DNA of 64,000 bases from Alistipes sp. (GTDB lineage Bacteria; Bacteroidota; Bacteroidia; Bacteroidales; Rikenellaceae): positions 1 through 64,000 of the forward strand of contig JAFWYM010000012.1 of assembly GCA_017517705.1 (NCBI GenBank), written 5' to 3'. The position numbers and the translations under genes were made by a program. This document shows, in pieces, positions 24,821 through 51,101 of the stretch; positions within the stretch are counted from its first letter, which is position 1, and every line of letters begins with the position of its first letter. The notes below the pieces were generated by a model, which was given only the letters and a program-made list of their open reading frames with translations, was not told the origin of the DNA and made no database searches.

Positions 24821-24947
24821 AATTTGTTGTCAGAAGGGGTTAGGCTTGGTCTCGACATGAAATCAGCCCGGATGGGACATACTAAGCGTATTTCCCATTC
24901 GGGCTGATGATTGAGAGGCCGAGAATGACCCCTTATCACAAGAAATT
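24821..24947. mobile_element. MITE/REP-like element, copy A
   Basis: 127 bp. The ends AATTTGTTGTCAGAAGGGGT and (reverse complement) AATTTCTTGTGATAAGGGGT form terminal inverted repeats. The core hairpin is GGATGGGACATAC / GTATTTCCCATTC. No ORF, so non-autonomous. Confidence 0.8.
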
Positions 24948-24948
24948 A

Positions 24949-25077
24949 AATTTGTTGTCAAAAGGTAGTAGATGCAACGCTCGGCGAATTTCGAGGCGAT
25001 GGGCTGTACTATGGCGTACTGCCCATTGCTGAGATAATTCGTTAGCGGCAGCAGATGCTGCCTTTTCACAACAAATT
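24949..25077. mobile_element. MITE/REP-like element, copy B, ending at the nucleotidyltransferase stop codon
   Basis: 129 bp with terminal repeats AATTTGTTGT at both ends and AAAGG next to them. The core hairpin is GATGGGCTGTAC / GTACTGCCCATTG. The right end overlaps the minus-strand TAA at 25076-25078. Confidence 0.85.
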
Positions 25078-25981
25078 ACCAGAGGTTACGCGGATATAAA
25101 CCACGCTCAATAAGCTCTTCGAGCTTTGCCATAAGCAACGGCTTATCCTCCTTATAAGTTACGCCAAACCAGTCACTTGTAGTCTTAAGCACGCGCATGG
25201 TAGCAGTGCCCTCGCTGATAAGTTTGTTAACCATTCTGGGGATGTAGAACTCGGACTTGAGGTTGTCGATATTCTCGGCAAGGAACTCCTTGAAATAGGC
25301 CTCAGAGTGGCGGAAGTAGTCGGGGGTGAAGCCAAAGAGGTTCATAGATACGGGGGTATCCTCCGCAAGAGGCTCATCGGCGCCACCATCATGGAAGAGG
25401 ATGGTGCCATTGACGCGCTCTATCTGTGTGCGCTCGACCATGCCACGAAGGTTGCCCTCGTCGTCTACGGTACATACACCTCGCGACACCGTACCATTCT
25501 CCGAGAGCGTCTTATTCACCTGGTAGCCAACCATACAATAGCGACCCTCAGTGCCCTCGAGAGTCTGGAGGTACTCACTGATAGTAGCATAAGCCTCGCG
25601 GCCATAGAAGTCGTCGGCATTGATAACAGCGAAGGGCTCGTTGATGACATTTGCAGCCATCATAACAGCATGGTTCGTACCCCACGGCTTCTGGCGTCCA
25701 TCGGGGAGTGTGAAGCCCTCGGGGAGGTAGTCGAGCTCCTGGAATACGTACTCCACAGCAATCTTACCACCGAAGCGCTCGGCGTTGAACACCTCCTTGA
25801 AGTCGGCCTCGAAAGAGTGACGGATAACAAAGACAACCTTACCGAAGCCGGCACGTATAGCATCGTATACCGAGTAGTCGATGATAGCCTCGCCATTGGG
25901 GCCTACGCCATCCATCTGCTTGAGCGATCCGTAGCGCGAGCCCATACCCGCAGCCAAGACCAAAAGTGTAGGTTTTACCAT
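25076..25981 (-). CDS. sugar-phosphate nucleotidyltransferase family protein
   Basis: 301 residues. NTP_transferase fold: LAAGMGSRYGSLKQMDGVG at the N-terminus (nucleotide-binding signature) and FAVINADDFYGREAY (metal-binding Asp). The C-terminal part lacks a left-handed beta helix, unlike GlmU. Close in plan to Bacteroidota nucleotidyltransferases of unknown sugar specificity. No sugar-pathway gene is adjacent. It is convergent with the lipoprotein gene and divergent from the LytM gene. Confidence 0.85.
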   Translation of the reverse strand: MVKPTLLVLAAGMGSRYGSLKQMDGVGPNGEAIIDYSVYDAIRAGFGKVVFVIRHSFEADFKEVFNAERFGGKIAVEYVFQELDYLPEGFTLPDGRQKPWGTNHAVMMAANVINEPFAVINADDFYGREAYATISEYLQTLEGTEGRYCMVGYQVNKTLSENGTVSRGVCTVDDEGNLRGMVERTQIERVNGTILFHDGGADEPLAEDTPVSMNLFGFTPDYFRHSEAYFKEFLAENIDNLKSEFYIPRMVNKLISEGTATMRVLKTTSDWFGVTYKEDKPLLMAKLEELIERGLYPRNLW

Positions 25982-26017
25982 AGTCGTATTATCTTAAATA
26001 TTATCAATTTCGTAGCA

Positions 26018-26025
26018 CAAAGGTA
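26018..26025 (-). promoter_or_regulatory. -7 box TACCTTTG of the nucleotidyltransferase
   Basis: Reverse complement of CAAAGGTA, 37 bp upstream of the start at 25981. The -33 box is imperfect. Confidence 0.5.
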
Positions 26026-26066
26026 AAAAAGTTATCGTAAAATACCAAGTATCCCACCATTTTCGT

Positions 26067-26074
26067 TATCTTTG
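26067..26074 (+). promoter_or_regulatory. -7 box TATCTTTG of the LytM/dxr operon
   Basis: Matches TAnnTTTG 58 bp before the ATG at 26133. No exact -33 TTTG. Confidence 0.5.
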
Positions 26075-26132
26075 TCGGGTTATACTCATATTAATGAGTA
26101 AGGACAAATTGTAATTAGTAATATTGAAGTAT

Positions 26133-26987
26133 ATGTTACGAGGATTCTGGGATTATCTCACCGACAAGCGTCAGCTCTCGATGCGCGACCGCGCCACCGA
26201 CGAGCTGCACTGGAGGGTAAACCTTACACCTATGGGACTTAGCGCCATGGTTGTAGGTTTGGTTGTGCTACTCTTTGTCACACTGCTGGCTCTTATGGCC
26301 TACACCTCGATTCTCGACATCCTCCCCGGCTACCGCACAAAGGCCGAGCGCACGAATGAGGCTCTCGTGGAGAGCATCATGCGCATAGACCTTATGGAGC
26401 GTAATATGGCGGAGCTCTTGGCATACAACGAGGCTGTCGCCACGGTTATGGGTGGCAGCACACCGGCGCTACACTCCACGGTGATGACCGACACCATACG
26501 ATACGACAAGTCGCGCATACTACCAACACGTGCCGACTCGTTGCTACGTGCAGCATTAGAGAGCACCACGGGCGAGTACTCGCTGACAAATACCAAGCCA
26601 CTGCAGTCGGAGGCTGCGATGTTTAGCGCACCGCTACGAGGCACCATAACACGTAATTTCGACGCTCCAGAGTCGAGCTACGACGTAGCAATCATGTCGC
26701 TCAAGGAGCAGGATAGCGTCACATCCATAGAGAATGGCACGGTCGTAGCCACCGAGAGCATGGCCGATGGCAGCAAGAGTGTGACGATACAGCACGCCGG
26801 GGGCTACATCTCGGTATACAAGCATCTTAGCGAGGTTCTCGTGCGCAAGGGACAGATGGTACAGAGTGGTGCTGTGATAGGTCGCCTTGGCACGCACGAG
26901 GGCGAGGAGTCGAGGAGCACGGAGCTCGGCTTCGAGCTATGGCGCGATGGCACGGCCGTAGACCCCGAGCGCTACATATTATTCTAA
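26133..26987 (+). CDS. LytM/M23-fold protein lacking zinc ligands (degenerate peptidase)
   Basis: The ATG at 26133 gives 284 residues (an upstream TTG adds only three). One TM at about 38-60 (MVVGLVVLLFVTLLALMAY), a coiled linker, then a LytM domain at about 170-284 recognised by IENGTVVATESM, VTIQHAGGYISVYKHL and LVRKGQMVQSGAVIGRLG. The usual HxxxD is replaced by SSYDVAIMS and the HxH before FE by TELGFELW, so the zinc site appears lost. By analogy with EnvC/NlpD it may regulate a peptidoglycan hydrolase. It heads the dxr-rseP-radA run. Confidence 0.85.
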   Translation: MLRGFWDYLTDKRQLSMRDRATDELHWRVNLTPMGLSAMVVGLVVLLFVTLLALMAYTSILDILPGYRTKAERTNEALVESIMRIDLMERNMAELLAYNEAVATVMGGSTPALHSTVMTDTIRYDKSRILPTRADSLLRAALESTTGEYSLTNTKPLQSEAAMFSAPLRGTITRNFDAPESSYDVAIMSLKEQDSVTSIENGTVVATESMADGSKSVTIQHAGGYISVYKHLSEVLVRKGQMVQSGAVIGRLGTHEGEESRSTELGFELWRDGTAVDPERYILF

Positions 26988-26999
26988 AACGATGTGACG

Positions 27000-28163
27000 A
27001 TGGCTATCGAGAGACTTACAATACTTGGTTCGACGGGGTCCATAGGCGTGCAGACGCTCGACATCGTACGTCGCCATCCTGAGCGTTTCAAGGTAACATC
27101 GCTCGTAGCACACAGCCGCTGGAGGGAGCTCGCAGCACAAGCACGCGAGTTCGACGTCGAGAGCGTGGTGATAGGCGACGAGAGCCACTATGCAGAGCTC
27201 AAAGAGGCACTCAAGGATACGACGATAGAGGTAATGGCCGGCAGCGAGGCTATCAACCACGTTGCACGCAGCTATCGTAGCGATACGGTGGTAAATGCTC
27301 TTGTGGGCTATGCCGGGTTACACCCCACAGCATTGGCCATAGAGAGCGGCAAACGTATAGCCTTGGCCAACAAGGAGACCTTAGTCGTGGGTGGCGACAT
27401 AATCATGGCGGCAGCGCGACGCAAGGGTGTGGATATTCTCCCCATAGACTCTGAGCACTCGGCAATAATGCAGTGCTTGGAGGGTGAGCAGCGCCGTAGC
27501 ATACGTAACCTTATCATCACCTGTAGCGGTGGAGCCCTGCGCGACATCGAACAAAGGGATCTTGCAGGTGTAACACCCGAGATGGCGCTCAAGCACCCCC
27601 AGTGGTCGATGGGCGCAAAGATAACCATCGACTCGGCAACGCTCGTAAACAAGGGCTTTGAGGTTATCGAGGCACGCTGGCTCTTCGACATCGAGCCAGA
27701 GCGTATAAAGGTTGTCATCCACCCGCAGTCTATCGTTCACTCGATGGTTGAGTTCACCGACGGCTCGGTGAAGGCACAACTCGGCAATGCCGATATGCAC
27801 ACGCCGATAAGCTACGCCCTGCTATACCCCGAGCGTGCCGCTCAGGCCGTGGAGCAGTTCTCGATACTGGACTACCCCACACTCACCTTCCGCGCACCCG
27901 ACAGGGATAAATACCCCGCGTTGGACATCGCCTACGAGTGTCTACACCGCGGAGGCACGGCACCATGCACGATGAATGGAGCCAACGAGGTAGCTGTGGC
28001 ATCGTTCCTCGGACATAAGTGTGGCTACCTCGACATTGTAGGCGCCATACGCTATGCCTTAGACAACGCCTCGTTTACGCCACATCCCACACTCGAGGAG
28101 TACGACCTTGCCAATAGCGAGGCACGTATGTTGGCAGCGAGATACCTCACACAGAGAAGCTAA
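27000..28163 (+). CDS. dxr: 1-deoxy-D-xylulose 5-phosphate reductoisomerase
   Basis: 387 residues from the ATG at 27000; a GTG at 26994 is possible but less likely. The NADPH motif is ILGSTGSIGVQTLDIVRRHP. The metal and substrate signatures are LPIDSEHSAIMQCL, CSGGALRD and KWSMGAKITIDSAT-like (QWSMGAKITIDSATLVNKG), followed by HPQSIVHSMVEF. It catalyses the first committed step of the MEP isoprenoid pathway, making 2-C-methyl-D-erythritol 4-phosphate. It is 12 bp downstream of the LytM gene and 38 bp upstream of rseP, a common bacterial neighbourhood. Confidence 0.97.
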   Translation: MAIERLTILGSTGSIGVQTLDIVRRHPERFKVTSLVAHSRWRELAAQAREFDVESVVIGDESHYAELKEALKDTTIEVMAGSEAINHVARSYRSDTVVNALVGYAGLHPTALAIESGKRIALANKETLVVGGDIIMAAARRKGVDILPIDSEHSAIMQCLEGEQRRSIRNLIITCSGGALRDIEQRDLAGVTPEMALKHPQWSMGAKITIDSATLVNKGFEVIEARWLFDIEPERIKVVIHPQSIVHSMVEFTDGSVKAQLGNADMHTPISYALLYPERAAQAVEQFSILDYPTLTFRAPDRDKYPALDIAYECLHRGGTAPCTMNGANEVAVASFLGHKCGYLDIVGAIRYALDNASFTPHPTLEEYDLANSEARMLAARYLTQRS

Positions 28164-28201
28164 AACAAGAGATAAACACTTATAAAACAGAAAATAAGAC
28201 T

Positions 28202-29521
28202 ATGAGCGGAATACTTCTTCAAGTTGTACAATTCTTTGCATCGCTATCGTTATTGGTCCTCATCCACGAGTTTGGCCACTACATCACGGCACGCATCTTC
28301 GGTGTGCGTGTCGAGAAGTTCTACCTCTTCTTCAACCCCTGGTTTACGCTCTACAAGCGCAAGATAGGCGACACGGAGTATGGTATCGGCTGGCTGCCTA
28401 TGGGTGGCTATGTGTCGTTGGCAGGCATGATTGACGAGTCGATGAACACGGAGCAGATGAAGCAGGCACCACAGCCCTGGGAGTTTCGCACGAAGCCCGC
28501 ATGGCAGAGACTCATCATTATGCTTGCGGGTATTGTGATGAACATACTCCTTGCCATTGTCATCTACGCCGGCATCCTCTACACGTGGGGCGAGAGCTAC
28601 TACCACAGCGAGGATATCAAGCACGGCTACATCTTCAACGAGCGTGCCGAGGCTCTCGGCTTCGAGGATGGCGACAACATCGTAGCCATCGACGGCTACA
28701 GAATAGGCAACATCAACGAGATACGCGAGCGTCTGATCATCACCGACCGAGACCGCGAGGTTACCGTTGTGCGCAACGGCGAGGAGGTGGCGATAGCCAT
28801 CGGACTCAAGGAGCTTGTATCTATGCGCGAGGATGGCACCATCGCCGACTTCTGCAAGATAAACGTGCCCTTCATCGTCGACGAGGTTAAGGCCGAGAGC
28901 GCGCGCGAGGCGGGCATAGAGCCTGGCGATAGGGTCATCGCCATCAACGATACACCCGTAACCGGCTTTTTCGATGGCCGCGAGAGGCTTCAGGGTCTGG
29001 CGAACACCGAGGCTCGCATAGCCGTCGTGCGTGGTGGCGTAGACACGCTGCAGCTAAACATACCAATAAACAGCGAGGCGCAGATAGGCGTAGTAACAGA
29101 CCTCATACAGCCCCGCACACGCGAGTATGGCTTCTGGGAGTCGATACCCGCAGGTGCCGAGTATACATGGGCGAAGGTAGTATCGTACTGGGAGCAGCTT
29201 AAGATGATCGTTAACCCCGAGACTAAGGGATATAAGGAGCTCGGAGGCTTCATCGCCATAGGCAGCATCTTCCCCGAGGAGTGGAGCTGGCTCAGCTTCT
29301 GGTCGCTTACGGCCTTCATATCGGTGGTGCTCGCCATCATGAACCTACTACCCATCCCCGGTCTCGATGGCGGACATGCCATCATCACACTCTGGGAGAT
29401 GATAACACGTCGCAAGCCGAGCGACAAGTTCCTCGAAGTATTGCAATACATAGGCCTCGGTCTGTTGTTGCTGCTTATGATATATGCCAACGGTAGCGAC
29501 ATCGTACGCCTCTTTAGTTAA
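28202..29521 (+). CDS. rseP: RIP site-2 metalloprotease RseP
   Basis: 439 residues. The zinc motif HEFGH is at residues 22-26 in the first TM, and the second catalytic motif is NLLPIPGLDGGHA near residue 385. A PDZ region lies between about 200 and 290. Four TM segments are predicted. It cleaves transmembrane substrates such as anti-sigma factors or signal-peptide remnants. Its stop overlaps the radA start by one base (TAATG). Confidence 0.95.
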   Translation: MSGILLQVVQFFASLSLLVLIHEFGHYITARIFGVRVEKFYLFFNPWFTLYKRKIGDTEYGIGWLPMGGYVSLAGMIDESMNTEQMKQAPQPWEFRTKPAWQRLIIMLAGIVMNILLAIVIYAGILYTWGESYYHSEDIKHGYIFNERAEALGFEDGDNIVAIDGYRIGNINEIRERLIITDRDREVTVVRNGEEVAIAIGLKELVSMREDGTIADFCKINVPFIVDEVKAESAREAGIEPGDRVIAINDTPVTGFFDGRERLQGLANTEARIAVVRGGVDTLQLNIPINSEAQIGVVTDLIQPRTREYGFWESIPAGAEYTWAKVVSYWEQLKMIVNPETKGYKELGGFIAIGSIFPEEWSWLSFWSLTAFISVVLAIMNLLPIPGLDGGHAIITLWEMITRRKPSDKFLEVLQYIGLGLLLLLMIYANGSDIVRLFS

Positions 29522-30885: not shown

Positions 30886-30913
30886 TACGACACACGTTAA
30901 GGTATAGATTTTG

Positions 30914-30946: not shown

Positions 30947-30974
30947 TACTTATATATATACCTATATATACCTT

Positions 30975-31295: not shown

Positions 31296-31337
31296 GAATC
31301 AATGAGTAATGAGGAGTGAGTAATATGTAAAGACTCC

Positions 31338-31469
31338 GGATTATTTGTCAGAAGGATGCCGAGTGCTACACTTGGCAAGAATGCCACCGATGGGATGTAC
31401 GCCAAGGTACTACCCATCGGTGGCATTCTTTGTCAGGAGACGCAATCGACCCCTTATCACAAATAATCC
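31338..31469. mobile_element. MITE/REP-like element, copy C, overlapping the AlkD-like stop codon
   Basis: 132 bp with ends GGATTATTTGT and (reverse complement) GGATTATTTGT. The core hairpin is AGAATGCCACCGATGGG / CCCATCGGTGGCATTCT around GTAC motifs. The right end covers the last four codons and stop of the gene at 31457. Confidence 0.85.
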
Positions 31470-32101
31470 ATACGCCAGTCGAGTTCCTCGGCTATAATCC
31501 TCTTCGCTCGACCTTCGGGCATGCTTTCAAGAAGCGTGGGCACTCCCACCCTGACAGATTTATCGCGCGAGGCGACATAGCACATTAGTGCCACGACACC
31601 ATTGGCTATATATCGCGAATCGGGGTTAGCACGCACAGCCTTCTCTGAGGCTACAAATGCCACCTCCATCGTGGTGCGCTCATTACGTGAGGCTGCCATA
31701 AGGGCTGCATAGGCTATCATCTCATTGCTCTCGGTAGACCACACACCCATAAGCGAGTTGATGTCGTATATCTTCGATAGGAGTGCAAAGGCGAGCTCCT
31801 CAGCCAACTCAGCATTTGCTATGCCGCGCGACCAGAAGGGAAACTCATTAACATCGACACGCTTAGCCTCGGCAATATGGCAGGCTGCGAGCTTCAACTC
31901 GCGCACCTGCTGGCGATATAGATACTTTGCAAAGTCGTAATCCTTAGGCTCCTCGGCGACAATCTCGCGTATCGTGGCGATGCTCACGCCATAGTTCAAG
32001 CCGTATGCCTGCCCATCCGTAGCCATAGTCTCGGCCACGGCGCCATTCATCTGCTTGCGCAGACGACCGAGCAACGCTATCATCCTCTGTGTATTATCCA
32101 T
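31457..32101 (-). CDS. DNA alkylation repair (AlkD-like) protein
   Basis: 214 residues from the ATG at 32101; a start at 32128 would overlap the upstream gene. All-helical HEAT-repeat pattern with YGLNYGVSIATIREIVAEE, YRQQVRELKLAACHIAE and EFPFWSRGIANAELAEELAF, as in Bacteroidota members of the AlkD family. These bind and excise alkylated bases. Identification is by overall pattern; the catalytic Asp was not assigned. Its last codons are built from the end of repeat copy C. Confidence 0.75.
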   Translation of the reverse strand: MDNTQRMIALLGRLRKQMNGAVAETMATDGQAYGLNYGVSIATIREIVAEEPKDYDFAKYLYRQQVRELKLAACHIAEAKRVDVNEFPFWSRGIANAELAEELAFALLSKIYDINSLMGVWSTESNEMIAYAALMAASRNERTTMEVAFVASEKAVRANPDSRYIANGVVALMCYVASRDKSVRVGVPTLLESMPEGRAKRIIAEELDWRMDYL

Positions 32102-32111
32102 CGTTGAAGTA

Positions 32112-32975
32112 TTATCGCGGGTTAGCATACATCACCGTCGTGCCATACTCATAAATTGGGAGTATACGGCGTAGGAGCACCTCCTGACCCAGCATTACAG
32201 CCACATCGGCATTGTTGGCATAGCGGTATGCCACGGTGCCCTTGAGGTCACTTGCGGGGTAGTCGCACGCCGTGGGCGTAATGGCAACCATTACGATCTC
32301 GCCATCGAGGTCGCCCTTCTCCACAAGGCCTCGCTCCGAGCTAAAGCGCGCAATAACATACGACGTAGTAGCGGCATCTATCGGAAGAAGCAACCTATGG
32401 TTCTTACGCACAACCTCACTCTTGCCGTAGAAGAGCTCAAGATATTGGCGCTCGAGGCGCTCAATCTCCTCGAGAGCGCTACCCAGGCCGCCACCAAAGA
32501 CACCCTCGCCAAGCTCTCCCGTAACGAGGTCGAGACGAGCACGACGCAGTGCAAATATCTGCTCCGCAGCATCACGTGCAGCATCCTCAAGGGGGTACTC
32601 CACCGACGAGAGGCGGTCGACCTGTAGCGGCAACTCGCATGTTGCGACATCACCCCTATCTGCCAAATCCGAGGCATAGAAGGCATCGCCCTCAAGGAGA
32701 GCGACATCCGCTGCAACGATGCTATGCTCCACGCGATTAACAAACGAGGCGCGCTTACCCAAGAGTTTCTGCGCATAACGGGCATAGGGGCCGGCAATGA
32801 AGGTCTCGGTCTCAACCTCGAGGTCAACGACGAGTGTCGTGGCTGCCTCAGCTACAACGACATTGCCACCCTCCTTATATACTCCGATACGCTTCTTCAC
32901 TACCTGCTGCGCCGAGGCATCCACGGCAACAAGTAGTACGACAAGCGTAGCGATGATGTACGATAATCTTCTCAT
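32112..32975 (-). CDS. DUF4831 family secreted protein
   Basis: 287 residues with a signal peptide (MRRLSYIIATLVVLLVAVDASAQ). The N-terminal half matches the Bacteroidota DUF4831 pattern (LVVDLEVETETFIAGPYARYAQKLLG). Function unknown; probably periplasmic. It has a full promoter at 33002-33032 and lies 10 bp upstream of the AlkD-like gene. Confidence 0.85.
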   Translation of the reverse strand: MRRLSYIIATLVVLLVAVDASAQQVVKKRIGVYKEGGNVVVAEAATTLVVDLEVETETFIAGPYARYAQKLLGKRASFVNRVEHSIVAADVALLEGDAFYASDLADRGDVATCELPLQVDRLSSVEYPLEDAARDAAEQIFALRRARLDLVTGELGEGVFGGGLGSALEEIERLERQYLELFYGKSEVVRKNHRLLLPIDAATTSYVIARFSSERGLVEKGDLDGEIVMVAITPTACDYPASDLKGTVAYRYANNADVAVMLGQEVLLRRILPIYEYGTTVMYANPR

Positions 32976-33726: not shown

Positions 33727-33737
33727 GACAATCGTTA

Positions 33738-41502: not shown

Positions 41503-42048
41503 AGTTATAGGTTTATTTCGGTGTTGAGTTGTAAGGTCATGTAAATAGTCGACAGTAATTTGTTGTCAGAATGGTGCATATCTGGCCTCGACTAAGATGC
41601 TACGACGGATGGGACATACTAATGGTATTTCCCATTCGGAGCAGCGCGAGGGTCGCTGCTGAGAGCCTCGCTACCCCTCAGCAAGCTGAGCGGTAGACGG
41701 GGCTCGAACCCGCGCTTACGCGCCCTTTTATTTTTGTTTACACCCCCGACCCCTGAAAGGGGCGATCGAGGGTCGCTGCTGAGAGCCTCGCTACCTCTCA
41801 GCAAGCTGAGCGGTAGACGGGGCTCGAACCCGCGCTTACGCGCTCGTTTATTTTTGCTTACACCCCCGACCCCTGAAAGGGGCGATCGAGGGTCGCTGCT
41901 GAGAGCCTCGCTACCTCTCAGCAAGCTGAGCGGTAGACGGGGCTCGAACCCGCGCTTACGCGCTCGTTTATTTGTGTTTACACCCCCGACCCCTGAAAGG
42001 GGCGATCGAGGGTCGCTGCTGAGAGCCTCGCTACCTCTCAGCAAGCTG
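41503..42048. other. 546-bp gene-free gap: truncated MITE and tRNA-derived tandem repeat
   Basis: No credible protein gene. The fucosidase-proximal part holds MITE copy D (41557-about 41640), whose right half is replaced by the first, partial unit of the 120-bp array (41648-42048) that leads into tRNA-Gly. Confidence 0.8.
41557..41640. mobile_element. MITE/REP-like element, copy D (right end lost)
   Basis: Left end AATTTGTTGTCAGAATGG and core hairpin CGGATGGGACATAC (41606-41619) / GTATTTCCCATTCG (41625-41638) are intact. The right arm breaks off at the tRNA-repeat array. Confidence 0.75.
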
Positions 42049-42074
42049 AGCGGTAGACGGGGCTCGAACCCGCG
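41648..42074 (-). repeat. 120-bp tandem repeats containing the 3' end of tRNA-Gly
   Basis: Units recur at exactly 120 bp; corresponding lines begin at 41641 (partial), 41761, 41881 and 42001. Each has a copy of the last 25 nt of the tRNA plus discriminator (41689-41714, 41809-41834, 41929-41954; the real one at 42049-42074). Each also has a hairpin GCTGAGAG / CTCTCAGC and a CCCCTTTCAGGGG stem on the tRNA strand. Copies differ at only a few bases. Because 120 is divisible by 3, both strands stay open with a 40-residue repeat, but no start context or domain supports a protein. The layout resembles the E. coli tyrT (rtT) repeats. Confidence 0.9.
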
Positions 42075-42121
42075 ACCCTCGGCTTGGGAAGCCGATGCTC
42101 TACCGACTGAGCTACTACCGC
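42049..42121 (-). tRNA. tRNA-Gly (anticodon CCC)
   Basis: On the minus strand the acceptor stem GCGGTAG/CTACCGC pairs perfectly. The D arm is GCTCAGTCGGTAGAGC, the anticodon arm TCGGCTTCCCAAGCCGA with anticodon CCC, and the T arm GCGGGTTCGAGCCCCGT. Discriminator U, as expected for Gly; CCA is not encoded. It decodes GGG. It lies between lepA (140 bp upstream) and the tandem array that repeats its 3' end. Confidence 0.97.
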
Positions 42122-44292: not shown

Positions 44293-46350
44293 ATGAAAAA
44301 CGGAAAAATTGGGGTGACGACAGAAAACATCTTCCCCGTAATCAAGAAGTTCCTTTATTCGGATCACGAGATATTCCTTCGCGAGCTCGTATCTAATGCC
44401 GTGGATGCCACACAAAAATTGAAGACCCTCACTTCGAAGGGTGAGGCCGAGGGCGAATTGGGCGACACGACGATACGCATAAGCGTAGACCAGGAGAAGA
44501 AGATTCTCACCATCACCGACCGTGGCATAGGCATGTCAATGGAGGAGGTAGACCGCTACATCAACCAGATAGCCTTCTCGGGTGCCGAGGAGTTCATGGC
44601 AAAGTATAAGGATCAGGCCATCATAGGTCACTTCGGCCTCGGCTTCTACTCGTCGTTCATGGTGGCCGACAAGGTGGAGATATTCTCGCAGTCGTACCGC
44701 AGCGACATGAAGAGCGTACACTGGAGTTGCAACGGCTCGCCCGAGTTCGAGATGGAGGAGCTCGACGAGAAGCTCGACCGCGGAACACGCATCGTGCTGC
44801 ACCTCTCGGACGACTGCGCCGAGTATGCCCAGCGTGCCGAGATATCTAAGTTATTGCGCAAGTATTGCCACTTCCTACCCATAGCTATAGCCTTTGGCAA
44901 GAAGCAGGAGTGGAAGGATGGCAAGTATGTCGACACGGACGAGGATAACATCATCAACGACACCACGCCCCTATGGACACGCAAGCCTACCGACATCACC
45001 GCCGAGGAGTACAAGGCCTTCTATGCCGACCTCTTCCCCGCAAGCGAGGAGCCGTTGTTCTACATACATCTGAATATCGACTACCCCTTCAACCTCACGG
45101 GCATACTCTACTTCCCGAAGATACGCAACAACTTCGAGATACAGAAGAACCGCATACAGCTATACTCAAACCAGGTATTTGTCACCGACGAGGTTACGGG
45201 CATAGTACCCGAGTATCTGACACTGCTGCACGGCGTCATCGACTCGCCCGACATTCCGCTAAACGTGTCACGCAGCTATCTGCAGAGTGACTCCAACGTG
45301 AAGAAGATTTCGGGATACATAACACGCAAGGTTGCCGACCGTCTGCAGGAGCTCTTCAACACCATGCGCCCCGACTACGAGGGTAAGTGGGATGACCTCA
45401 AGATATTCATCCAATACGGCATGCTTACGGATGAGAAGTTCGCCGAGAAGGCCGCAGGCTTTATGCTATGGAAGAGCATCGAGGGTAAGTATTACACCTC
45501 GGAGGAGTATATCTCGAAAATCAAGGATCTGCAGACCGACAAGGATGGCTTCACCATAGCACTCTATGTCGATGACGTGGAGGGTAAGAATGCCTTTGTT
45601 GAGGCGGCAAAGGCCAAGGGTTACGACATCCTCGAGATGAACGGCCAGCTCGACAGCCACTATATACAATACTTCGAGTCGAAGAACGAGAAGATACGCT
45701 TCGTGCGCGTAGATAGCGACGTTGTAGAAAACCTCATACGCAAGGAGGAGCGCGAGGCTATGTCGCTAAGCTCTGAGCAGCAGCAGATTATGCGCCCGGT
45801 GTTCGAGAGCCAGATGCCCAACGACGAGAAGATACACTACCACGTATCGTTCGAGGCGATGTCGAAGGATGCCGCACCTGTGGTCATCACACAGAATGAG
45901 TTTATGCGCCGCATGAAGGATATGGCCGCAACGAGTGGTGGCGAGATGAGTCGCTTCTACAGCGAGATGCCCGACTCGTTCACCATCACCGTCAACGGCA
46001 ACCACCCCATCGTCCTCGACATCCTTGGCGAGGTGGAGGGTGAGTATGGCGACAAGCTGCGCACCATCGGCAAGAAGATTACCGCCGCGGAGCAGGAGGA
46101 GAGTCGCTTCGAGGAGACCGTGAAGGATAAGAAGGCGGAGGAGCTCACGCCCGAGGAGCGCGACATGCGCGAGACACTATCGAAGCGCGTGGTGGAGCTT
46201 CGCCAGGAGCGCGACACACGCCTCGAGGAGATAGGCCGCCAGAACCGCAAGGTGCGCCAGATTATCGACCTCGCACTGCTCTCGAACGGCATGCTCAAGG
46301 GTAAGAACCTCACCGACTTTATACAGCGAAGCATATCGCTCATAGAGTAA
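44293..46350 (+). CDS. htpG: molecular chaperone HtpG (Hsp90)
   Basis: 685 residues. GHKL ATPase motifs: LRELVSNAVDATQKL near residue 30, TDRGIGMSMEEVDRYI, and IGHFGLGFYSSFMVAD. The middle domain has FYIHLNIDYPFNLTGILYFP and DIPLNVSRSYLQSD, with a C-terminal dimerisation region rich in charged helices. ATP-dependent folding chaperone in the cytoplasm. The upstream region has a palindrome and a possible alternative-sigma promoter, fitting stress control. A strong terminator follows. Confidence 0.98.
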   Translation: MKNGKIGVTTENIFPVIKKFLYSDHEIFLRELVSNAVDATQKLKTLTSKGEAEGELGDTTIRISVDQEKKILTITDRGIGMSMEEVDRYINQIAFSGAEEFMAKYKDQAIIGHFGLGFYSSFMVADKVEIFSQSYRSDMKSVHWSCNGSPEFEMEELDEKLDRGTRIVLHLSDDCAEYAQRAEISKLLRKYCHFLPIAIAFGKKQEWKDGKYVDTDEDNIINDTTPLWTRKPTDITAEEYKAFYADLFPASEEPLFYIHLNIDYPFNLTGILYFPKIRNNFEIQKNRIQLYSNQVFVTDEVTGIVPEYLTLLHGVIDSPDIPLNVSRSYLQSDSNVKKISGYITRKVADRLQELFNTMRPDYEGKWDDLKIFIQYGMLTDEKFAEKAAGFMLWKSIEGKYYTSEEYISKIKDLQTDKDGFTIALYVDDVEGKNAFVEAAKAKGYDILEMNGQLDSHYIQYFESKNEKIRFVRVDSDVVENLIRKEEREAMSLSSEQQQIMRPVFESQMPNDEKIHYHVSFEAMSKDAAPVVITQNEFMRRMKDMAATSGGEMSRFYSEMPDSFTITVNGNHPIVLDILGEVEGEYGDKLRTIGKKITAAEQEESRFEETVKDKKAEELTPEERDMRETLSKRVVELRQERDTRLEEIGRQNRKVRQIIDLALLSNGMLKGKNLTDFIQRSISLIE

Positions 46351-46362
46351 CAAGTAACAAAA

Positions 46363-46403
46363 AAAATGGGGATGACTAAAAGTAAATTTGTCATCCCCAT
46401 TTT
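46363..46403 (+). terminator. htpG intrinsic terminator
   Basis: 14-bp perfect stem AAAATGGGGATGAC / GTCATCCCCATTTT with a 13-nt loop, 13 bp after the stop. Confidence 0.9.
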
Positions 46404-46410
46404 GTTAAGA

Positions 46411-46530
46411 GGTTGAATAAAAAGATGTAGTTTTAGGCCTGCGAAGCCCGAAAAAGCGGAGTTTACTTGACGTAAATGAGCATTTTGAGGGCGAGCATAA
46501 CGCAGAAATACACTTTTTATTCAGCCTCAT
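46411..46530. mobile_element. MITE-like element of a second family, copy K
   Basis: Ends GGTTGAATAAAAAG and (reverse complement of the right end) GGCTGAATAAAAAG form inverted repeats. The core AAAAGCGGAGTTTACTTGA.GTAAATGAGCATTTT is shared with copy J (54804-54897). The element ends at the stop of the membrane protein gene (46531). Confidence 0.7.
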
Positions 46531-47031
46531 TTATATCATACGTTGCCTCTTCCTCCTCATACGCATAAGAGCTATCTCCGCACGTGAGCGACGACGTATC
46601 TGTCTGTAGCGTAGCAAGCACCCCACAAAGGCAAGCCAAATAACAAGCGACGATGCCGCAGTCTTGTACGCCATCATGATGTCGGAAAACTCCTCAAGCC
46701 AGTAGAGCAGGAAGGGTAACAGCGTCATCGCCGTAGCCCACATACCCGTGACCCATGTTGCCCGCCACCAGCACGTGCGCGGAGCAAGGCGACGAAAGCT
46801 CAAGTACAGACCCACCGCGAGTAAGAGTATAGCCACGATAGGCTGTAGCCACTCGGCATAGGGCACATAATCGGCGAGAAGGTCTATCTTCAACATTAAG
46901 ATAAACGCCACGGCTGCAAGGATGTCGCCAAGGTGTATCTTATTGCCCCCACCTCTACTTCTTAGACGACGCATCGCCTTCGACTCGAATGGGTCGTAGC
47001 GAAAACGCCAAATGCTGTACCTATTTTTCAT
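46531..47031 (-). CDS. membrane protein of the SPFH/RHH operon, unknown function
   Basis: 166 residues from MKNRYSIWRFRYDPFESK; a longer start would lie inside the upstream gene. Four hydrophobic segments at about 39-55, 65-83, 95-117 and 128-147 are followed by a very basic tail (RRRSRAEIALMRMRRKRQ). No domain recognised. It overlaps the ribbon-helix-helix gene by 11 bp, so they are translationally coupled. Confidence 0.75.
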   Translation of the reverse strand: MKNRYSIWRFRYDPFESKAMRRLRSRGGGNKIHLGDILAAVAFILMLKIDLLADYVPYAEWLQPIVAILLLAVGLYLSFRRLAPRTCWWRATWVTGMWATAMTLLPFLLYWLEEFSDIMMAYKTAASSLVIWLAFVGCLLRYRQIRRRSRAEIALMRMRRKRQRMI

Positions 47032-47224
47032 TGCTACCCTCCTCCTTAGTTTTATTACGTTTTGCACGAGGCTTGCGCCCACTACGACGCAAGGCCTCGG
47101 CAATAATCCATTGCAACTGTCCATTCACCGAGCGAAACTCGTCGGCAGCCCACTTCTCGAGGGCATCCATCGTCTCGCCATCAACGCGAAGCACAAAGTT
47201 GCGTGTCGTTGTATCCTTTGCCAT
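47021..47224 (-). CDS. Arc-like ribbon-helix-helix DNA-binding protein
   Basis: 67 residues: the beta strand TTTRNFVLRVDGETMDALEKW and helices through NGQLQWIIAEALRRSG match the Arc/MetJ RHH fold, with a basic C-terminus (RKPRAKRNKTKEE). Such proteins bind DNA as dimers on tandem sites. Two TGATATCA sites 11 bp apart at the operon promoter (48404-48422) are a plausible autoregulatory target. It lies 17 bp after the SPFH gene. Confidence 0.85.
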   Translation of the reverse strand: MAKDTTTRNFVLRVDGETMDALEKWAADEFRSVNGQLQWIIAEALRRSGRKPRAKRNKTKEEGSNEK

Positions 47225-47241
47225 AGGGGGTAGGCGTAGGT

Positions 47242-48180
47242 TTAGTTGTGTAACGTACCGGTATTAACCACGGGCTGTGCCGCCTCATCGGCACAGAGCA
47301 CAACAAGCAGGTTGCTCACCATCGCCGCCTTGCGCTCCTCATCGAGTTCTACGACATCCTCCGTAGATAGACGCTCGAGGGCTATCTTAACCATCGACAC
47401 AGCACCCTCGACAATCTTCTCGCGTGCCGAGATGATGGCATCCGCCTGCTGACGACGAAGCATCGCCGCAGCAATCTCGGGAGCATACGCCAGATAGTTC
47501 AACCTCGCCTCGACAACCTCTATGCCGGCCATCGAGAGGCGCTCGTTGAGCTCGTCGGTAAGGCGCTCGTTAATCTCATCGCCACCCGAGCGGAGCGTGA
47601 CCTCCTCGGATGAACTGTTCGAGTTCTCGTCGTAGGCATACATGCCCGCAACCTGACGTAGTGCCGAGTCGCTCTGCACAGCAACGAAGTTTTCGAGGGT
47701 ATTCATACGTGTCGTCGAGCCCATGGCACCAACCTCCAAGGGGGCATCAATCTCGAATACAGCCTTATAGGCGCCATCGCGGTTAATCTTCCACACCACA
47801 ACCAAGCCTATGAGTATGGGGTTACCTGCCTTGTCGTTAACCTTGATGGGGTCTACGTTGAGGTTGCGGGCACGCAACGAGAGCTTCTTTGCCGTCATGA
47901 AGGGGTTTATCCACCAGAAGCCCGTGTCGTAGAACGTACCACGATAGTTGCCAAAGAAGAGCAATACGCGCGACTCGTTAGGCTCAAGCATGATGTAACC
48001 GCCAAGCATTATCAACATCGTAAGCGCAGATACCACAATACCTACGATTGCAAGTGCATTAGCCTCGACAGAGTTCGCCTGCCACACGATGCAGAGCACC
48101 AATGCAGCAACGAACAGGAGATTTAATACGAGGGCGATGAAACCGTTTAGTTTCCAGCCCGAATAGGTGTAATTTTTCAT
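47242..48180 (-). CDS. SPFH/Band 7 domain membrane protein
   Basis: 312 residues. Two N-terminal TM helices (about 11-32 and 38-62) precede an SPFH domain (MLEPNESRVLLFFGNYRGT, NLNVDPIKVNDKAGNPILIG), and a coiled region ends near the C-terminus (RRQQADAIISAREKIVEGAV). Resembles flotillin/stomatin scaffold proteins that organise membrane microdomains. Co-transcribed with the RHH and four-TM membrane genes; the same trio is typical in Bacteroidales. Confidence 0.92.
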   Translation of the reverse strand: MKNYTYSGWKLNGFIALVLNLLFVAALVLCIVWQANSVEANALAIVGIVVSALTMLIMLGGYIMLEPNESRVLLFFGNYRGTFYDTGFWWINPFMTAKKLSLRARNLNVDPIKVNDKAGNPILIGLVVVWKINRDGAYKAVFEIDAPLEVGAMGSTTRMNTLENFVAVQSDSALRQVAGMYAYDENSNSSSEEVTLRSGGDEINERLTDELNERLSMAGIEVVEARLNYLAYAPEIAAAMLRRQQADAIISAREKIVEGAVSMVKIALERLSTEDVVELDEERKAAMVSNLLVVLCADEAAQPVVNTGTLHN

Positions 48181-48215
48181 GATAATGGTGTTTTATGCGT
48201 TATACTTTCTCTCGA

Positions 48216-48347
48216 CTATAACTCCATGTCTGCCCTCTTTTGAGGTGTGCGCAAGCGCCAAAACTCCGCCTTCCACGGCCATACGCGCAATTTGCCAAAC
48301 GAATAGCCCCCAGTGAGCCATCTCCAAAATCTACTTGTCGTCTTCAT
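48216..48347 (-). CDS. possible 43-residue basic, Trp-rich leader protein
   Basis: A minus-strand reading frame from ATG at 48347 to TAG at 48216 encodes 43 residues starting MKTTSRFWRWLTGGYS, with five Trp and many Lys/Arg. It lies between the operon promoter (48404-48430) and SPFH, in the same direction, and is too short for most gene finders. The position is suggestive, but coding is not proven; it might instead be an untranslated leader. Confidence 0.4.
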   Translation of the reverse strand: MKTTSRFWRWLTGGYSFGKLRVWPWKAEFWRLRTPQKRADMEL

Positions 48348-48403
48348 AGCTACATGGTCTTAAGTTAAACATCTTATTTAATCCAAAAAACATCATCGCT
48401 AAA

Positions 48404-48430
48404 TGATATCATTTTGATATCACAAAGATA
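48404..48430 (-). promoter_or_regulatory. SPFH operon promoter with tandem TGATATCA operator
   Basis: -7 TATCTTTG (plus 48423-48430) is directly followed on the minus strand by two 8-bp palindromes TGATATCA (48415-48422 and 48404-48411), 11 bp centre to centre, over the expected transcription start. The geometry suits an RHH repressor such as the one encoded at 47021. Confidence 0.65.
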
Positions 48431-48518
48431 CGACATTATTTTTTAATTGTGCAAGGATTTTAGAAGATTTTTTTGAGGGTTGCCATGTGTTTTGATTTGT
48501 TACTACTCCCTGTGTGAT

Positions 48519-48635
48519 AATTCTTGATTTTCTGGTGCTACGCACCTTCATCCCAATAAAGTGCATCTCTTTTCAAGCGAGCTTGAATGCTACACTTTAT
48601 TGGGATGCTACCACGGTAGCAGAAAATCAAGAATT
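48519..48635. repeat. cloverleaf-like nested inverted repeat
   Basis: Outer perfect 16-bp stem (48519-48534/48620-48635, AATTCTTGATTTTCTG). Side hairpins GGTGC-tac-GCACC (48534-48546) and GCTAC-cacg-GTAGC (48607-48620). Inner perfect 15-bp stem (48549-48563/48593-48607, CATCCCAATAAAGTG). Apical hairpin TTCAAGC-ga-GCTTGAA (48572-48587). No ORF. Confidence 0.85.
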
Positions 48636-48680
48636 TTAACGTATTAATCAATCTTTATTTTTATATTTTATATTTACAAT

Positions 48681-48746
48681 CCCTCTAAATCCCCCTTTGA
48701 AAAGGGGGACTTGTGGCAAGGCTACGCCTTGCACACCTAAAGGTGT
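48681..48746. repeat. cluster of three short hairpins
   Basis: TCCCCCTT-gaaa-AAGGGGGA (48690-48709), GCAAGGC-tac-GCCTTGC (48716-48732) and ACACCT-aa-AGGTGT (48733-48746) follow each other with almost no spacers. The first is like a widely dispersed bacterial intergenic hairpin. Confidence 0.7.
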
Positions 48747-48862
48747 CGAGTGAAATCGCAGAATTACAAAATGCTTATAACTAATTTATATTTAGCGCCT
48801 TAACTAATATAATGTGAAATTTCTCGAAATAGCAGTAATCGTTTTTTAAGAAGATAAGGACA

Positions 48863-48977
48863 ATTAAGGAGTTTAAGGAATTTAAGGAGTTTAGGGAGTT
48901 TAGGGAGAGCGCTATCATCATTTATCACTACACTCCTTAAATTCACTAAATTCTCTAAATTCTCTAACCTCCCTAAT
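48863..48977. repeat. 9-bp-unit inverted array, copy R3
   Basis: Left: five units of aaggagttt type. Hinge gagagcgctatcatc. Right: five units of ttctctaaa/ctccctaat type. Closely matches R2 including the flank cacaacctcc and the beginning of a MITE. Confidence 0.8.
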
Positions 48978-49068
48978 TCACAACCTCCCTCGCTGCACAC
49001 CCTAATTTCTTGTCAGAAGGGATTAAGCTTGGCGTATCACAAAAGAATACTCCTCGGGACAGTAATCT

Positions 49069-49194
49069 CTTTAGCGTCAGAGTGGCGCTAATGTGGCGCT
49101 GACATGAAAAAGCCATGGATGGATAGTACTTGAACGTACATTCCATTCATGGCTTTGATTGAAGCGCCGCAGTAGCGCCACTATCACGCTAAAG
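49069..49194. mobile_element. MITE/REP-like element, copy F, at the AspT-type stop codon
   Basis: 126 bp with 21-bp ends CTTTAGCGTCAGAGTGGCGCT and (reverse complement) the same with two mismatches. The core hairpin is GGATGGATAGTAC / GTACATTCCATTC. The right end contains the minus-strand TAG at 49189-49191. Its ends differ in sequence from copies A-C while the core layout is kept. Confidence 0.8.
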
Positions 49195-50895
49195 GGCGGC
49201 GAGCATTAATAGTTGCGCAGTTAATACTCGTAGGAACATAACAACGGGATAGACCGTAGCATAGCTTACGGCAGGCATATCGTTGCCTGATGAGGCGCTT
49301 GCGAAGCCGAGGGCCGGAGGGTCGGTCATAGAGCCCGCCATAAGACCCATGAGGGTGTAGTAGTTAAGCTTGAACTTAAGACGTGCAAGGAGTGCCACAA
49401 CGACAAGGGGAAGTACGGTGATGATGACACCATAGCCAATCCACTTATAGCCACCATCGACGATAGCATCGATGAAGCCGTCACCGGCGCCTATACCCAC
49501 AGCTGCGAGGAACATTGCAAGGCCTATCTCGCGAAGCATAAGGTTGGCACTCATCGTCGTATATGTCACGAGGTGGAAGTGCGGGCCATAGCGACCGAGA
49601 AGGATGGCGATGATAAGGGGGCCACCGGCAAGGCCGAGCTTCACGGGCTGAGGGATATTCATTAGAGGCATAGAGCCGAGCACCACACCGAGAGCGATGC
49701 CTATGAATACGGGCAGCAGGTTGGGATGGTCGAGCTTCTTGAGCGAGTTACCCAGCACCTTCTCGGCCTGAGCAACAGCAGCCTCGGGGCCCACGACCAT
49801 AACCTTATCGCCCACCTGAAGCTCCATACCCTGATAGGGGATGAGGTCGACACCGGCACGATGCACGCGGGTGATGTTTATGCCGTAGCGTGTGCGGAGG
49901 CGCAAATCCGAGAATTTCTTGCCGTTGATTTCCTCGCGCGTGATGAGGATACGGCGCGACACAAGTGGCGTAGACTGCATCGCCGTAGCGCCCCAGTCGT
50001 CAGCCGTCATCTCCACAGGCTTACCGAAGAAGGCGAGGATGGCCTCACTATCCTCCTCCGTGCAGATGATACGCAGGCGGTCGCCAATGGCGAGCTTGGA
50101 GTTACCATCGGCCATGACAATCTCGCCCGAGGGGTGCATGATGCGCGACACCACAAACTGACGGTTGATGAGCATGTGGGCTATGGCTATGGTCTTACCC
50201 TCGAGCATCTCGTTGGTAAACTCCACAGAGAAACGCTGCGGGAGGTTGGTGACATCGCTCATGGCCGCAAGACCCTCATCCTCCTTCTTGAAGTCTACAT
50301 GGAGGATATATCGCATGATGATGACCGTAAGGATGATACCCACGACACCGAGGGGGTATGCCACGGCATAGCCCAACGATATAGAGTCCGCAATGTCGGG
50401 GTCGGCAAGGCCCGAGTCGGTATATGCCTGCTGCGCAGCACCCAGACCCGGCGTGTTGGTCACAGCACCCGAGAGGACACCCACCATCGTAGGCAGGGGC
50501 TCACCGGTTATGAGGTGTATGACGTATGTAGTAACCACACCCAGGAGTATAACAAGAGTAGCGAGACCTATGAGCTTCAGGCCGCCGCTCTTTAGCGACG
50601 AGAAGAAGCCGGGGCCCACCTGCAAGCCGATGAAAAAGACGAAGAGGATAAGTCCGAACTCCTTGATGAAATGGAGCGTGTCGTGGTGTATAGTGCCCGG
50701 CTCAAGGAAGTGACCAAAGGCGATACCCGTGAAGAGTATCCACGTCATGCCGAAGGATATGCCTTTGATCTTGATACGACTGAGAGCTATACCCGAGGCT
50801 ATCACCGCCGCAAGGACAAAAACAGTGTGTGCTATCGAGGGGTGCGCGGGGTCACCACTACCCATCACGACAGTCTTAAGCCACTCAAAATTCAT
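49189..50895 (-). CDS. AspT/YidE-type putative transporter with two RCK_C domains
   Basis: 568 residues. Two five-TM halves (about 20-205 and 400-568) with the duplicated signature GVLSGAVTNTPGLGAAQQAY and GLMAGSMTDPPALGFASAS flank two TrkA_C/RCK_C domains (about 215-380, e.g. GKTIAIAHMLINRQF and GMELQVGDKVMVVGPEA). Family members exchange aspartate/alanine or related dicarboxylates; substrate unknown here. Confidence 0.92.
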   Translation of the reverse strand: MNFEWLKTVVMGSGDPAHPSIAHTVFVLAAVIASGIALSRIKIKGISFGMTWILFTGIAFGHFLEPGTIHHDTLHFIKEFGLILFVFFIGLQVGPGFFSSLKSGGLKLIGLATLVILLGVVTTYVIHLITGEPLPTMVGVLSGAVTNTPGLGAAQQAYTDSGLADPDIADSISLGYAVAYPLGVVGIILTVIIMRYILHVDFKKEDEGLAAMSDVTNLPQRFSVEFTNEMLEGKTIAIAHMLINRQFVVSRIMHPSGEIVMADGNSKLAIGDRLRIICTEEDSEAILAFFGKPVEMTADDWGATAMQSTPLVSRRILITREEINGKKFSDLRLRTRYGINITRVHRAGVDLIPYQGMELQVGDKVMVVGPEAAVAQAEKVLGNSLKKLDHPNLLPVFIGIALGVVLGSMPLMNIPQPVKLGLAGGPLIIAILLGRYGPHFHLVTYTTMSANLMLREIGLAMFLAAVGIGAGDGFIDAIVDGGYKWIGYGVIITVLPLVVVALLARLKFKLNYYTLMGLMAGSMTDPPALGFASASSGNDMPAVSYATVYPVVMFLRVLTAQLLMLAAL

Positions 50896-50970
50896 TATAT
50901 CGTTGTTTATGGGTTAGTCTATTCGTGGCAAAGATTGAGAGGTCGCAGGTGACCCACAATCACAGCCAGC

Positions 50971-51101
50971 TAATTCTTTATTTGAAGGTAGTAGATGTAG
51001 CCTCGATTAAGAAATTGCCTCGGATGGGACATACACTGACGTATTTCCCATTCGGGGCAATGATTTAGAGGTCGCAGATGCTACCTTATAAGCGAAAATT
51101 A
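50971..51101. mobile_element. MITE/REP-like element, copy G, at the efp stop codon
   Basis: 131 bp. Ends TAATTCTTTATTTGAAGGTAG and (reverse complement) TAATTTTCGCTTATAAGGTAG. The core hairpin is GGATGGGACATAC / GTATTTCCCATTC, with an ATTGCC/GGCAAT extension. The right end overlaps the efp TAA (51099-51101). Confidence 0.8.

What the first reader, a model, noticed from the sequence alone, without database searches (positions are those of the whole stretch)
24821..51101. MITE/REP-like family whose ends coincide with stop codons of minus-strand genes
Copies A (24821), B (24949), C (31338), D (41557), E (42221), F (49069), G (50971), H (52447) and I (14435) share a layout. Complete ones are 126-132 bp with terminal inverted repeats and a central hairpin ATGGG..RTAC-loop-GTAy..CCCAT. 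The arms change together: ACATAC/GTATTT in A, D and G; CTGTAC/GTACTG in B; ATAGTAC/GTACAT in F. Unpaired positions near the GTAC are retained. Copies B, C, E, F, G and I end exactly at or inside the stop codon of a minus-strand gene (nucleotidyltransferase, alkD, lepA, AspT-type, efp, dnaN). Six such coincidences are hard to explain by chance. Either insertion targets gene ends, or the elements serve as selected 3' UTR/terminator structures. The GGTAGTAG next to the ends of B and G recalls the GTAG mark of REP elements moved by RAYT transposases (established for enterobacterial REPs).
Basis: partly seen in the sequence, partly recalled or inferred. Interest (0 to 1): 0.75.

Follow-up and report, generated by a model that had tools for sequence, protein, structure and literature searches.

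The report
Mobile hairpins docked at stop codons
A family of about 130-base hairpin DNA elements in ruminant-gut Alistipes bacteria sits at the stop codons of genes, facing the same way, apparently standing in for the usual transcription terminator while its own sequence keeps being swapped; how it finds stop codons is unknown.

Summary
The own genome has 73 distinct places matching a covariance model of its copies (70 analysed). In other genomes of the genus, 29 of 37 gene-adjacent copies end within 3 nt of the facing stop codon; 1.9 were expected by chance. Polarity is fixed: with orientation taken from the gene, the antisense strand folds better in 98 of 103 docked copies. Covariation beats all shuffles. 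Coding ends are unchanged with or without an element. At efp, an intrinsic terminator follows 1 of 22 elements but lies within 100 nt of the stop in 43 of 54 element-free genomes. About half of the elements carry a sense-strand T-tract at the apical hairpin. In the sister species G044, 14 of 15 testable slots are occupied, but by elements no more similar than random pairs. One locus shows a clean 127-bp insertion at the stop codon. RAYT is refuted: no Y1 transposase in 61 genomes. Best reading: mobile fold-back terminators docking at stop codons and exchanged in place. The enzyme and the way stops are found are unknown.

The parts
24821..24947 (+). Copy A, complete 127-bp element, distal member of the A-B pair between convergent genes
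24949..25077 (+). Copy B, complete, right end overlaps the stop codon of the minus-strand gene 25076-25981
31338..31469 (+). Copy C, complete; the minus-strand gene 31457-32128 ends on the TGA inside the element's GTGATAA motif
41557..41639 (+). Copy D, right part lost at a 120-bp tandem repeat; not at a stop codon
42220..42261 (+). Copy E, remnant at the lepA stop (by eye); the slot holds full elements in G044, G035 and G021
49004..49064 (+). Left half of a type-4 element broken at its apical loop, distal to F
   Evidence: (left end matched), rest by eye
49069..49194 (+). Copy F, outer stem CTTTAGCG/CGCTAAAG includes the TAG stop of the AspT-type gene 49189-50895
50971..51101 (+). Copy G, at the efp stop (51099-51101)
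52445..52485 (+). Copy H, apical hairpin remnant about 23 nt past the stop of gene 52509-54638; slot holds a full element in G021
14433..14480 (+). Copy I, perfect palindrome (collapsed element) at the dnaN TAG stop; full element at the same stop in G044
24957..24962 (+). Left core motif of copy B (GTCAAA; GTCAGA in most copies), one side of the conserved internal loop

Best explanation
These are mobile fold-back elements that carry a transcription terminator. A canonical element (AATTTSTTGTCAGA...TATCACAASAAATT, about 127 bp) is inserted at the stop codon of a gene, in one orientation only, and re-forms the stop (T + AATT gives TAA) without changing the protein. Its apical hairpin with a T-tract on the sense strand then serves as the gene's terminator; a native intrinsic terminator is rarely found beyond it. 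The gene end is therefore held as a slot, while the content of the slot is replaced by later insertions at the same stop and/or by gene conversion among copies. SHOWN (by sequence): exact docking and polarity, unchanged coding ends, one clean 127-bp insertion, slot conservation with content exchange, near absence of intrinsic terminators beyond elements, sense-strand T-tract bias, better folding of the antisense strand. INFERRED: terminator activity, mobility through a single-stranded intermediate of the antisense polarity, and the order in which element and terminator replaced each other. UNKNOWN: the enzyme, and how stop codons are found.
For: Docking: 29 of 37 right ends within 3 nt of the facing stop, 1.9 expected; 39 of 39 gene-adjacent copies face a minus-strand gene, two more were called on the other strand by the model but fold in the usual orientation; in G000 67 of 69 neighbours face the element, 27 at exactly -1. 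No alternative end: 0 of 41 left ends within 3 nt of a facing stop in G000. Orientation from the gene alone: antisense strand folds better in 35 of 40 (G000), 38 of 38 (other species) and 25 of 25 (efp). Protein ends: Der and ProS C-termini conserved with and without element; efp CDS 570 nt in 80 of 80 genomes, all 25 element-bearing ones use TAA against 44 of 55 others. Insertion: after the stop of a GAPDH-like gene (name recalled), G044 has exactly 127 nt more than G000, followed by a near-identical older element. Five identical copies stand at five G059 loci with different flanks just outside AATT...AATT. Terminator role: efp 1 of 22 against 43 of 54; gene ends of the window and relatives 3 of 43 against 76 of 196, P=2e-5; T-rich hexamer at the foot of the apical hairpin on the sense strand only 29, antisense only 6. 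Exchange: 14 of 15 slots shared with G044 (chance P about 1e-15), identity 0.661 against 0.665 for all pairs. Patchy spread: 41 of 61 genomes of the genus.
Against: No mobilising enzyme was found; Y1 and reverse transcriptase gave no match in the own genome, and a 98%-complete high-copy genome (G040) has only 2 tyrosine recombinase matches, perhaps just XerC/D. No target-site duplication is clear: the GAPDH-like locus fits none (or 3 bp), one efp locus fits about 8 bp. Only 46 of 90 elements have 5 T in 6 at the hairpin foot, 23 of 90 have it on the antisense strand, and at 6 T in 6 there is no bias (4 against 6). The G-U bias lies on the strand that is NOT the mRNA, which a pure terminator would not need. 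Distal flanks start with AA/AG/GA, as a split stop codon would leave, in only 20 of 49 (background 0.25, P=0.013). Slot sharing falls to 3 of 13 (G040) and 2 of 21 (G059) sampled in more distant species. In tandem pairs the gene-proximal copy is not always the better-scoring one. One G000 site with an orthologue in G044 is empty there. Three of 39 gene-adjacent copies in other species lie 149-584 nt from the called gene. Counts across species are not phylogenetically independent.
Confidence: 0.58

Rival explanations
1. Non-mobile 3'-end structures: the hairpins arose with the genes as terminators or mRNA stabilisers and evolve in place under selection for pairing; similarity among copies comes from gene conversion.
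For: Slots conserved between G000 and G044 (14 of 15); covariation; terminator replacement; same basal stem with different interior at AspT and lepA slots.
Against: Clean 127-bp insertion at one slot; identical or near-identical copies at different genes; most sampled slots unshared with G040 and G059; better folding on the non-mRNA strand.
Confidence: 0.17
2. Ordinary MITE of an unseen DDE or other transposase with an AATT-like target; selection removes all insertions except those at gene ends.
For: Terminal inverted repeats, AATT at both ends of canonical copies, identical dispersed copies.
Against: Selection alone would leave copies scattered through intergenic space in both orientations; 29 of 37 lie within 3 nt of the stop against 1.9 expected, and orientation is fixed. 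Outer stems vary freely (CGTTTGATG, TTTATCG, TTAGCA). DDE families were not searched.
Confidence: 0.1
3. Enzyme-free turnover: template switching and ectopic recombination between hairpins at replication forks copy elements into gene-end hairpins.
For: Perfect palindrome in copy I; in G044 the alkD slot holds a 17-nt inverted copy of the gene's own coding end (by eye); distal arms complementary to coding sequence; content exchange within kept basal stems.
Against: Conserved mismatched internal loops (GTCAGA/TATCAC) survive, which arm-to-arm copying should erase; precise full-length insertion.
Confidence: 0.12
4. Retroelement-like (SINE-like) copying of the structured strand's RNA, primed at a nick by the stop codon.
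For: Better folding of one strand, precise gene-proximal end, some distally truncated copies.
Against: RVT_1 gives no match in the own genome, G044 or G059, and is present in only 20 of 61 genomes without following element copy number.
Confidence: 0.03
5. REP sequences moved by a RAYT transposase.
For: Palindromic, gene-end location; REP termini are reported often to provide a TAG stop (PMC3733652, section 15 read).
Against: Y1_Tnp without match in 61 of 61 genomes; no unpaired terminal GTAG; about 127 bp rather than 20-40 bp.
Confidence: 0.01

Closest known systems
REP / GTAG and CGTC repeats and RAYT
   Same: Dispersed palindromes near 3' ends; many within 20 bp of ORF ends, GTAG termini often supplying TAG (PMC3733652, passages and section 15 read)
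   Different: No Y1 transposase, about 127 bp, no unpaired tetranucleotide tag, fixed polarity, offset mostly at the stop codon itself
ERIC/IRU (127-bp RU-1) and RU-2 of enterobacteria
   Same: Imperfect palindromes of about the same length, intergenic, MITE-like (PMC2759123, start of abstract in search listings only)
   Different: Copy A has no match in 20,395 E. coli records at E<=0.01; ERIC target and position rules were not tested here
Intrinsic (Rho-independent) terminators
   Same: Hairpin with T-tract at the gene's 3' end; nearly mutually exclusive with the elements at efp
   Different: The terminator-like hairpin sits in the apex of a long conserved rod that exists in dozens of dispersed copies
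Integron attC sites
   Same: A long imperfect hairpin just past a gene, with the folded strand antisense to the gene (attC features recalled)
   Different: Arms of the recalled R-box consensus are not present (variable outer stems); the neighbouring housekeeping genes stay in place between species

Membership tests
REP/RAYT | RAYT (Y1_Tnp, PF01797) encoded in the genome or its relatives | tested here: not met
   0 of 61 genomes, controls ring in 5 of 14; own genome 0
REP/RAYT | Unpaired terminal GTAG (or CGTC) tag next to a 20-40 bp hairpin | tested here: not met
   Ends are AATTTSTTG/CAASAAATT arms; GGTAGTAG of B and G lies inside the rod, mostly paired
MITE of a DDE transposon | Terminal inverted repeats | tested here: met
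MITE of a DDE transposon | Constant-length target-site duplication | tested here: inconclusive
   One filled/empty pair fits no duplication (or 3 bp), another about 8 bp
MITE of a DDE transposon | Autonomous element with the same ends | not tested
   No search for long elements with these ends, nor for DDE families, was made
Intrinsic terminator | Hairpin followed by a T-tract on the sense strand | tested here: inconclusive
   5 T in 6 on the sense strand in 46 of 90, antisense 23 of 90; discordant 29 to 6, P=1e-4; no bias at 6 T in 6
Intrinsic terminator | Stops transcription | not testable with these tools
   Needs 3'-end mapping or a reporter
Integron attC | Conserved R-type boxes (consensus recalled) | tested here: not met
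   By reading the ends: outer arms vary freely between copies
Integron attC | Integron integrase present | not tested
   Only the general Phage_integrase family was counted: 4 in G000, 2 in G040
Known RNA family (Rfam 15) | Match to a covariance model | tested here: not met
   No hit at gathering in the window except a tRNA; none at E up to 1 in 24790-25100
IS91-like Y2 elements | Y2_Tnp (PF04986) | tested here: inconclusive
   0 of 61, but nothing rang in the controls either

The most novel reading that the evidence does not exclude
A mobile element class whose target is the stop codon itself: a single-stranded hairpin intermediate, antisense to the gene, is joined within the termination codon, so that insertion is harmless by design; the element then supplies the gene's terminator and makes its slot indispensable, while copies compete for slots.
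Probability: 0.3. Interest if true: 0.9.

Novelty: new variant of a known kind. Interest (0 to 1): 0.73.

Why it matters
If right, this is a way for a mobile element to be both harmless and hard to lose: land where the protein already ends, take over the terminator, and be replaced only by another copy. It gives a genome-wide, natural exchange of terminators at orthologous genes, so the effect of 3' ends on expression can be compared between sister species. It also poses a sharp question: how can a DNA or RNA process recognise a stop codon, a signal that normally has meaning only to the ribosome?

Tried and rejected
RAYT/IS200: rejected. Reverse transcriptase: not correlated. Y2 transposase: uninformative, controls silent. 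Tyrosine recombinases (15 genomes searched): in all, with 2 in high-copy G040 and 17 and 19 in G060 and G023, which have no element match, so no link. Phage, plasmid and viral origin: copies A-B have no match in plasmids or phages at E<=0.001; three viral pattern hits look like chance hits inside other sequence. E. coli repeats: no match. Rfam: none. An mRNA-strand structure as the only reason for conservation: disfavoured by the strand bias. Insertion inside coding regions with the element merely supplying a stop: rejected by unchanged C-termini and by the excess of offset -1 over -11 (27 to 4). A first regular-expression detector for elements undercounted and was replaced by the covariance model. 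Two copies (L207 1649, L210 1395) were called by the model on the strand opposite to the usual one; they stand that way, were turned, were left out of the right-end count, and are the 2 of 37 left-end hits there. At efp the model reported L284's proximal copy only on the sense strand, though its antisense strand folds better like the rest. Three of the 73 own-genome places (C16, C32, C39:28096) were not analysed; of the 101 matches only the better strand of each place was kept (59 rows); one of these (L217) had no called gene to its right.
Full report
WHAT IS THERE. The window lies in a 1.99-Mb draft genome (96% complete). The closest named efp matches are Alistipes sp. MAGs, mostly from ruminant hindgut, so the host is very probably an Alistipes species. 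Copies A, B, C, F and G are complete and all lie on the + strand. They fold into a single rod of -57 to -79 kcal/mol on that strand. A covariance model from 22 own-genome copies finds 107 matches at E<=0.1 in the own genome, which are 73 distinct places, the rest being overlapping or reverse-strand matches. Conserved parts are the two sides of an internal loop (GTCAGA...TATCAC) and an apical hairpin with RTAC...GTAY. The stems vary with compensation: 27 of 38 pairs change on both sides and no shuffle reaches the observed values.

WHERE THEY SIT. In the own genome 70 of the 73 places were analysed with a simple codon-based gene caller. With the structured strand as +, the right-hand neighbour is a minus-strand gene in 67 of 69 cases (one had none called). 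Its stop codon overlaps the element's last base (offset -1) in 27, and it lies within 3 nt in 35 of 69. Copies farther away are mostly distal members of tandem arrays or truncated copies. No left end lies within 3 nt of a facing stop (0 of 41). An independent set of 59 copies from G040, G041, G059 and G003 lies in loci picked from the best model scores only. Of 39 gene-adjacent copies there, all 39 face a minus-strand gene, 27 at offset -1, 3 at 0, 4 at -11, one each at -6 and 2; three lie 149-584 nt away. Two further docked copies (L207, L210) were called by the model on the opposite strand; both fold better in the usual orientation. Of the 37 usable for the control, 29 lie within 3 nt of the stop. 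Uniform placement in the same gaps predicts 1.9, with a maximum of 9 in 100,000 simulations.

THE STOP CODON IS THE NATIVE ONE. Der and ProS (named) were searched in 61 genomes each, found in 56 and 56, and 30 loci of each were read. The protein ends are conserved whether or not an element follows. In the close clade the same stop carries different element types or none. efp is 570 nt long in 80 of 80 named genomes. The model finds an element at its stop in 20 of 30 close-clade genomes (97-100% identical protein) and 5 of the other 50, beginning between 2 nt before and 10 nt after the end of the stop codon. The model puts 24 of these 25 on the strand antisense to efp; for L284 it reports the sense strand, but the antisense strand folds better in 25 of 25. 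All 25 use TAA; 11 of the 55 others use TAG.

ONE INSERTION SEEN. After the stop of a GAPDH-like gene (name recalled from the sequence), G000 has one type-4 element. G044 has exactly 127 additional nucleotides, a canonical AATTTGTTG...CAACAAATT element, between the stop codon and a near-identical copy of that type-4 element. Removing the canonical element leaves T+AG, a TAG stop, at the same distance, so no duplication is needed; a 3-bp duplication is also possible. A second, less close pair at efp (L277 or L300 against L284) fits an insertion 7 nt past the stop with about 8 bp repeated. The target rule is therefore open. In G059, five identical copies and five more at 97-99% stand at ten loci whose flanks differ just outside AATT...AATT.

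SLOTS STAY, CONTENT CHANGES. Of 22 own-genome sites whose G044 orthologue was fetched, about 20 hold an element in G044 by eye. With the stricter model-based test it is 14 of 15, against 28 elements among 391 called genes (chance P about 1e-15). Yet the partner at the same slot is no more similar (0.661) than any G000-G044 pair (0.665), and its rank among 28 is spread from 1 to 26. At the AspT-type gene the basal stem, which contains the TAG stop, is shared while the interior differs. At lepA the basal stem is shared between G044 and G035 with unlike apical modules. In more distant species fewer slots are shared: 3 of 13 sampled in G040 and 2 of 21 in G059.

TERMINATORS. Element-free efp genes have a plain intrinsic terminator close to the stop: 9 of 10 in the close clade and 43 of 54 overall in equal 100-nt windows, against 1 of 22 beyond an element (P=8e-10, species not independent; 4 of the 80 loci were too short). 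Across gene ends in the window, G044 and other fetched relatives the figures are 76 of 196 against 3 of 43 (P=2e-5). Mononucleotide-shuffled downstream sequence gives 26 of 400 by the same detector. Inside the elements, T-rich hexamers occur almost only at the feet of the rod and at the 3' foot of the apical hairpin. There they favour the sense strand: 46 of 90 against 23 of 90, discordant 29 to 6. At the strictest cut (6 of 6 T) there is no bias (4 against 6).

THE FOLDED STRAND. Of 89 copies less than 93% identical, the strand called + by the model folds better in 82 (mean -66.2 against -52.6). A strand-symmetric comparison of the arms gives 432 G-T against 76 A-C oppositions on that strand. 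Taking orientation from the docked gene instead of the model, the antisense strand folds better in 35 of 40 copies of G000, 38 of 38 of the other species and 25 of 25 at efp. Selection on mRNA structure alone does not explain this. A single-stranded intermediate of that polarity does, and so might a mutational bias (C to T) on that strand, which I did not exclude.

SPREAD AND MOBILISER. 41 of 61 genomes of the genus have matches and 20 have none; the counts shown are capped at 57 and include both strands. In the order, only one other genome of 294 has matches (G268, another family, two loci). Both loci keep the GTCAGA/TATAAC-TATCAC and TAC...GTA features. In one (L259) the called gene stops at the TAA inside the motif; in the other (L260) a TGA sits there but the caller found no gene (strict filters were in force, so weak relatives may be missed). 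Y1_Tnp has no match in 61 of 61. RVT_1 has none in the own genome and is present in 20 of 61 without following copy number. Phage_integrase has only 2 matches in high-copy G040. Plasmid and phage collections gave nothing. DDE transposases were not searched. No mobiliser is known.

LITERATURE. REP repeats lie close to 3' ends, and their GTAG termini often supply a TAG stop (PMC3733652, passages and section 15). REPs within 15 nt of a stop codon are said to stall ribosomes (PMC12306157, passages). Of the papers listed by searches on Alistipes with REP or RAYT (10 of 50 shown), MITEs, palindromes and stop codons (15 of 77 shown), palindromic repeats, terminators and Bacteroidales (12 of 241 shown), ERIC and stop codons (10 of 14 shown) and REP with termination codons (8 of 21 shown), none was seen to describe this family; two further searches found no paper. 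Only titles and abstract beginnings were seen for most, and only the open-licence literature is held.

VERDICT. A real, large, genus-centred family of mobile fold-back elements with an exact and polar relation to stop codons. The terminator role is well supported but unproven; the docking mechanism is open.

Noticed in passing
window 24692-24798, 48855-48990, 54684-54751, 60246-60343, 62666-62789, 191-249: Nine-base minisatellites (TAGGGAGTTTAAGGAG type), often as facing inverted arrays, some near the distal side of elements; in several G059 loci a linker plus such arrays recurs next to elements. They may be part of a larger composite 3'-end repeat.
   Followed up: partly
window 46450-46486 and 54837-54873: Repeat GAAAAAGCGGAGTTTACTTGA.GTAAATGAGCATTTT resembles the apical module of another hairpin type; at the lepA stop of G035 and G021 a related module sits on the basal stem of the present family.
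   Followed up: partly
L316 and L329 (efp), G044 orthologue of window 44293-46350: A further fold-back type with a CAAGC.AGCTTG apex occurs just past stop codons; not matched, or only weakly, by the model.
   Followed up: no
window 41647-42074: 120-bp unit repeated 3.6 times at 98% that contains tRNA-like 3' sequence and runs into the neighbouring tRNA-Gly gene (42048-42121, minus strand), truncating copy D.
   Followed up: partly
L180 (G044) at the alkD orthologue; window 31457: Where G000 has copy C, G044 has a 17-nt inverted copy of the gene's own coding end plus a scar of an element's distal arm: a template-switch-like palindrome (by eye).
   Followed up: partly
L259, L260 (G268, another family of the order): Two diverged relatives of the element outside the genus, each with a stop triplet inside the TGATAA/TTATAA core motif.
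   Followed up: partly
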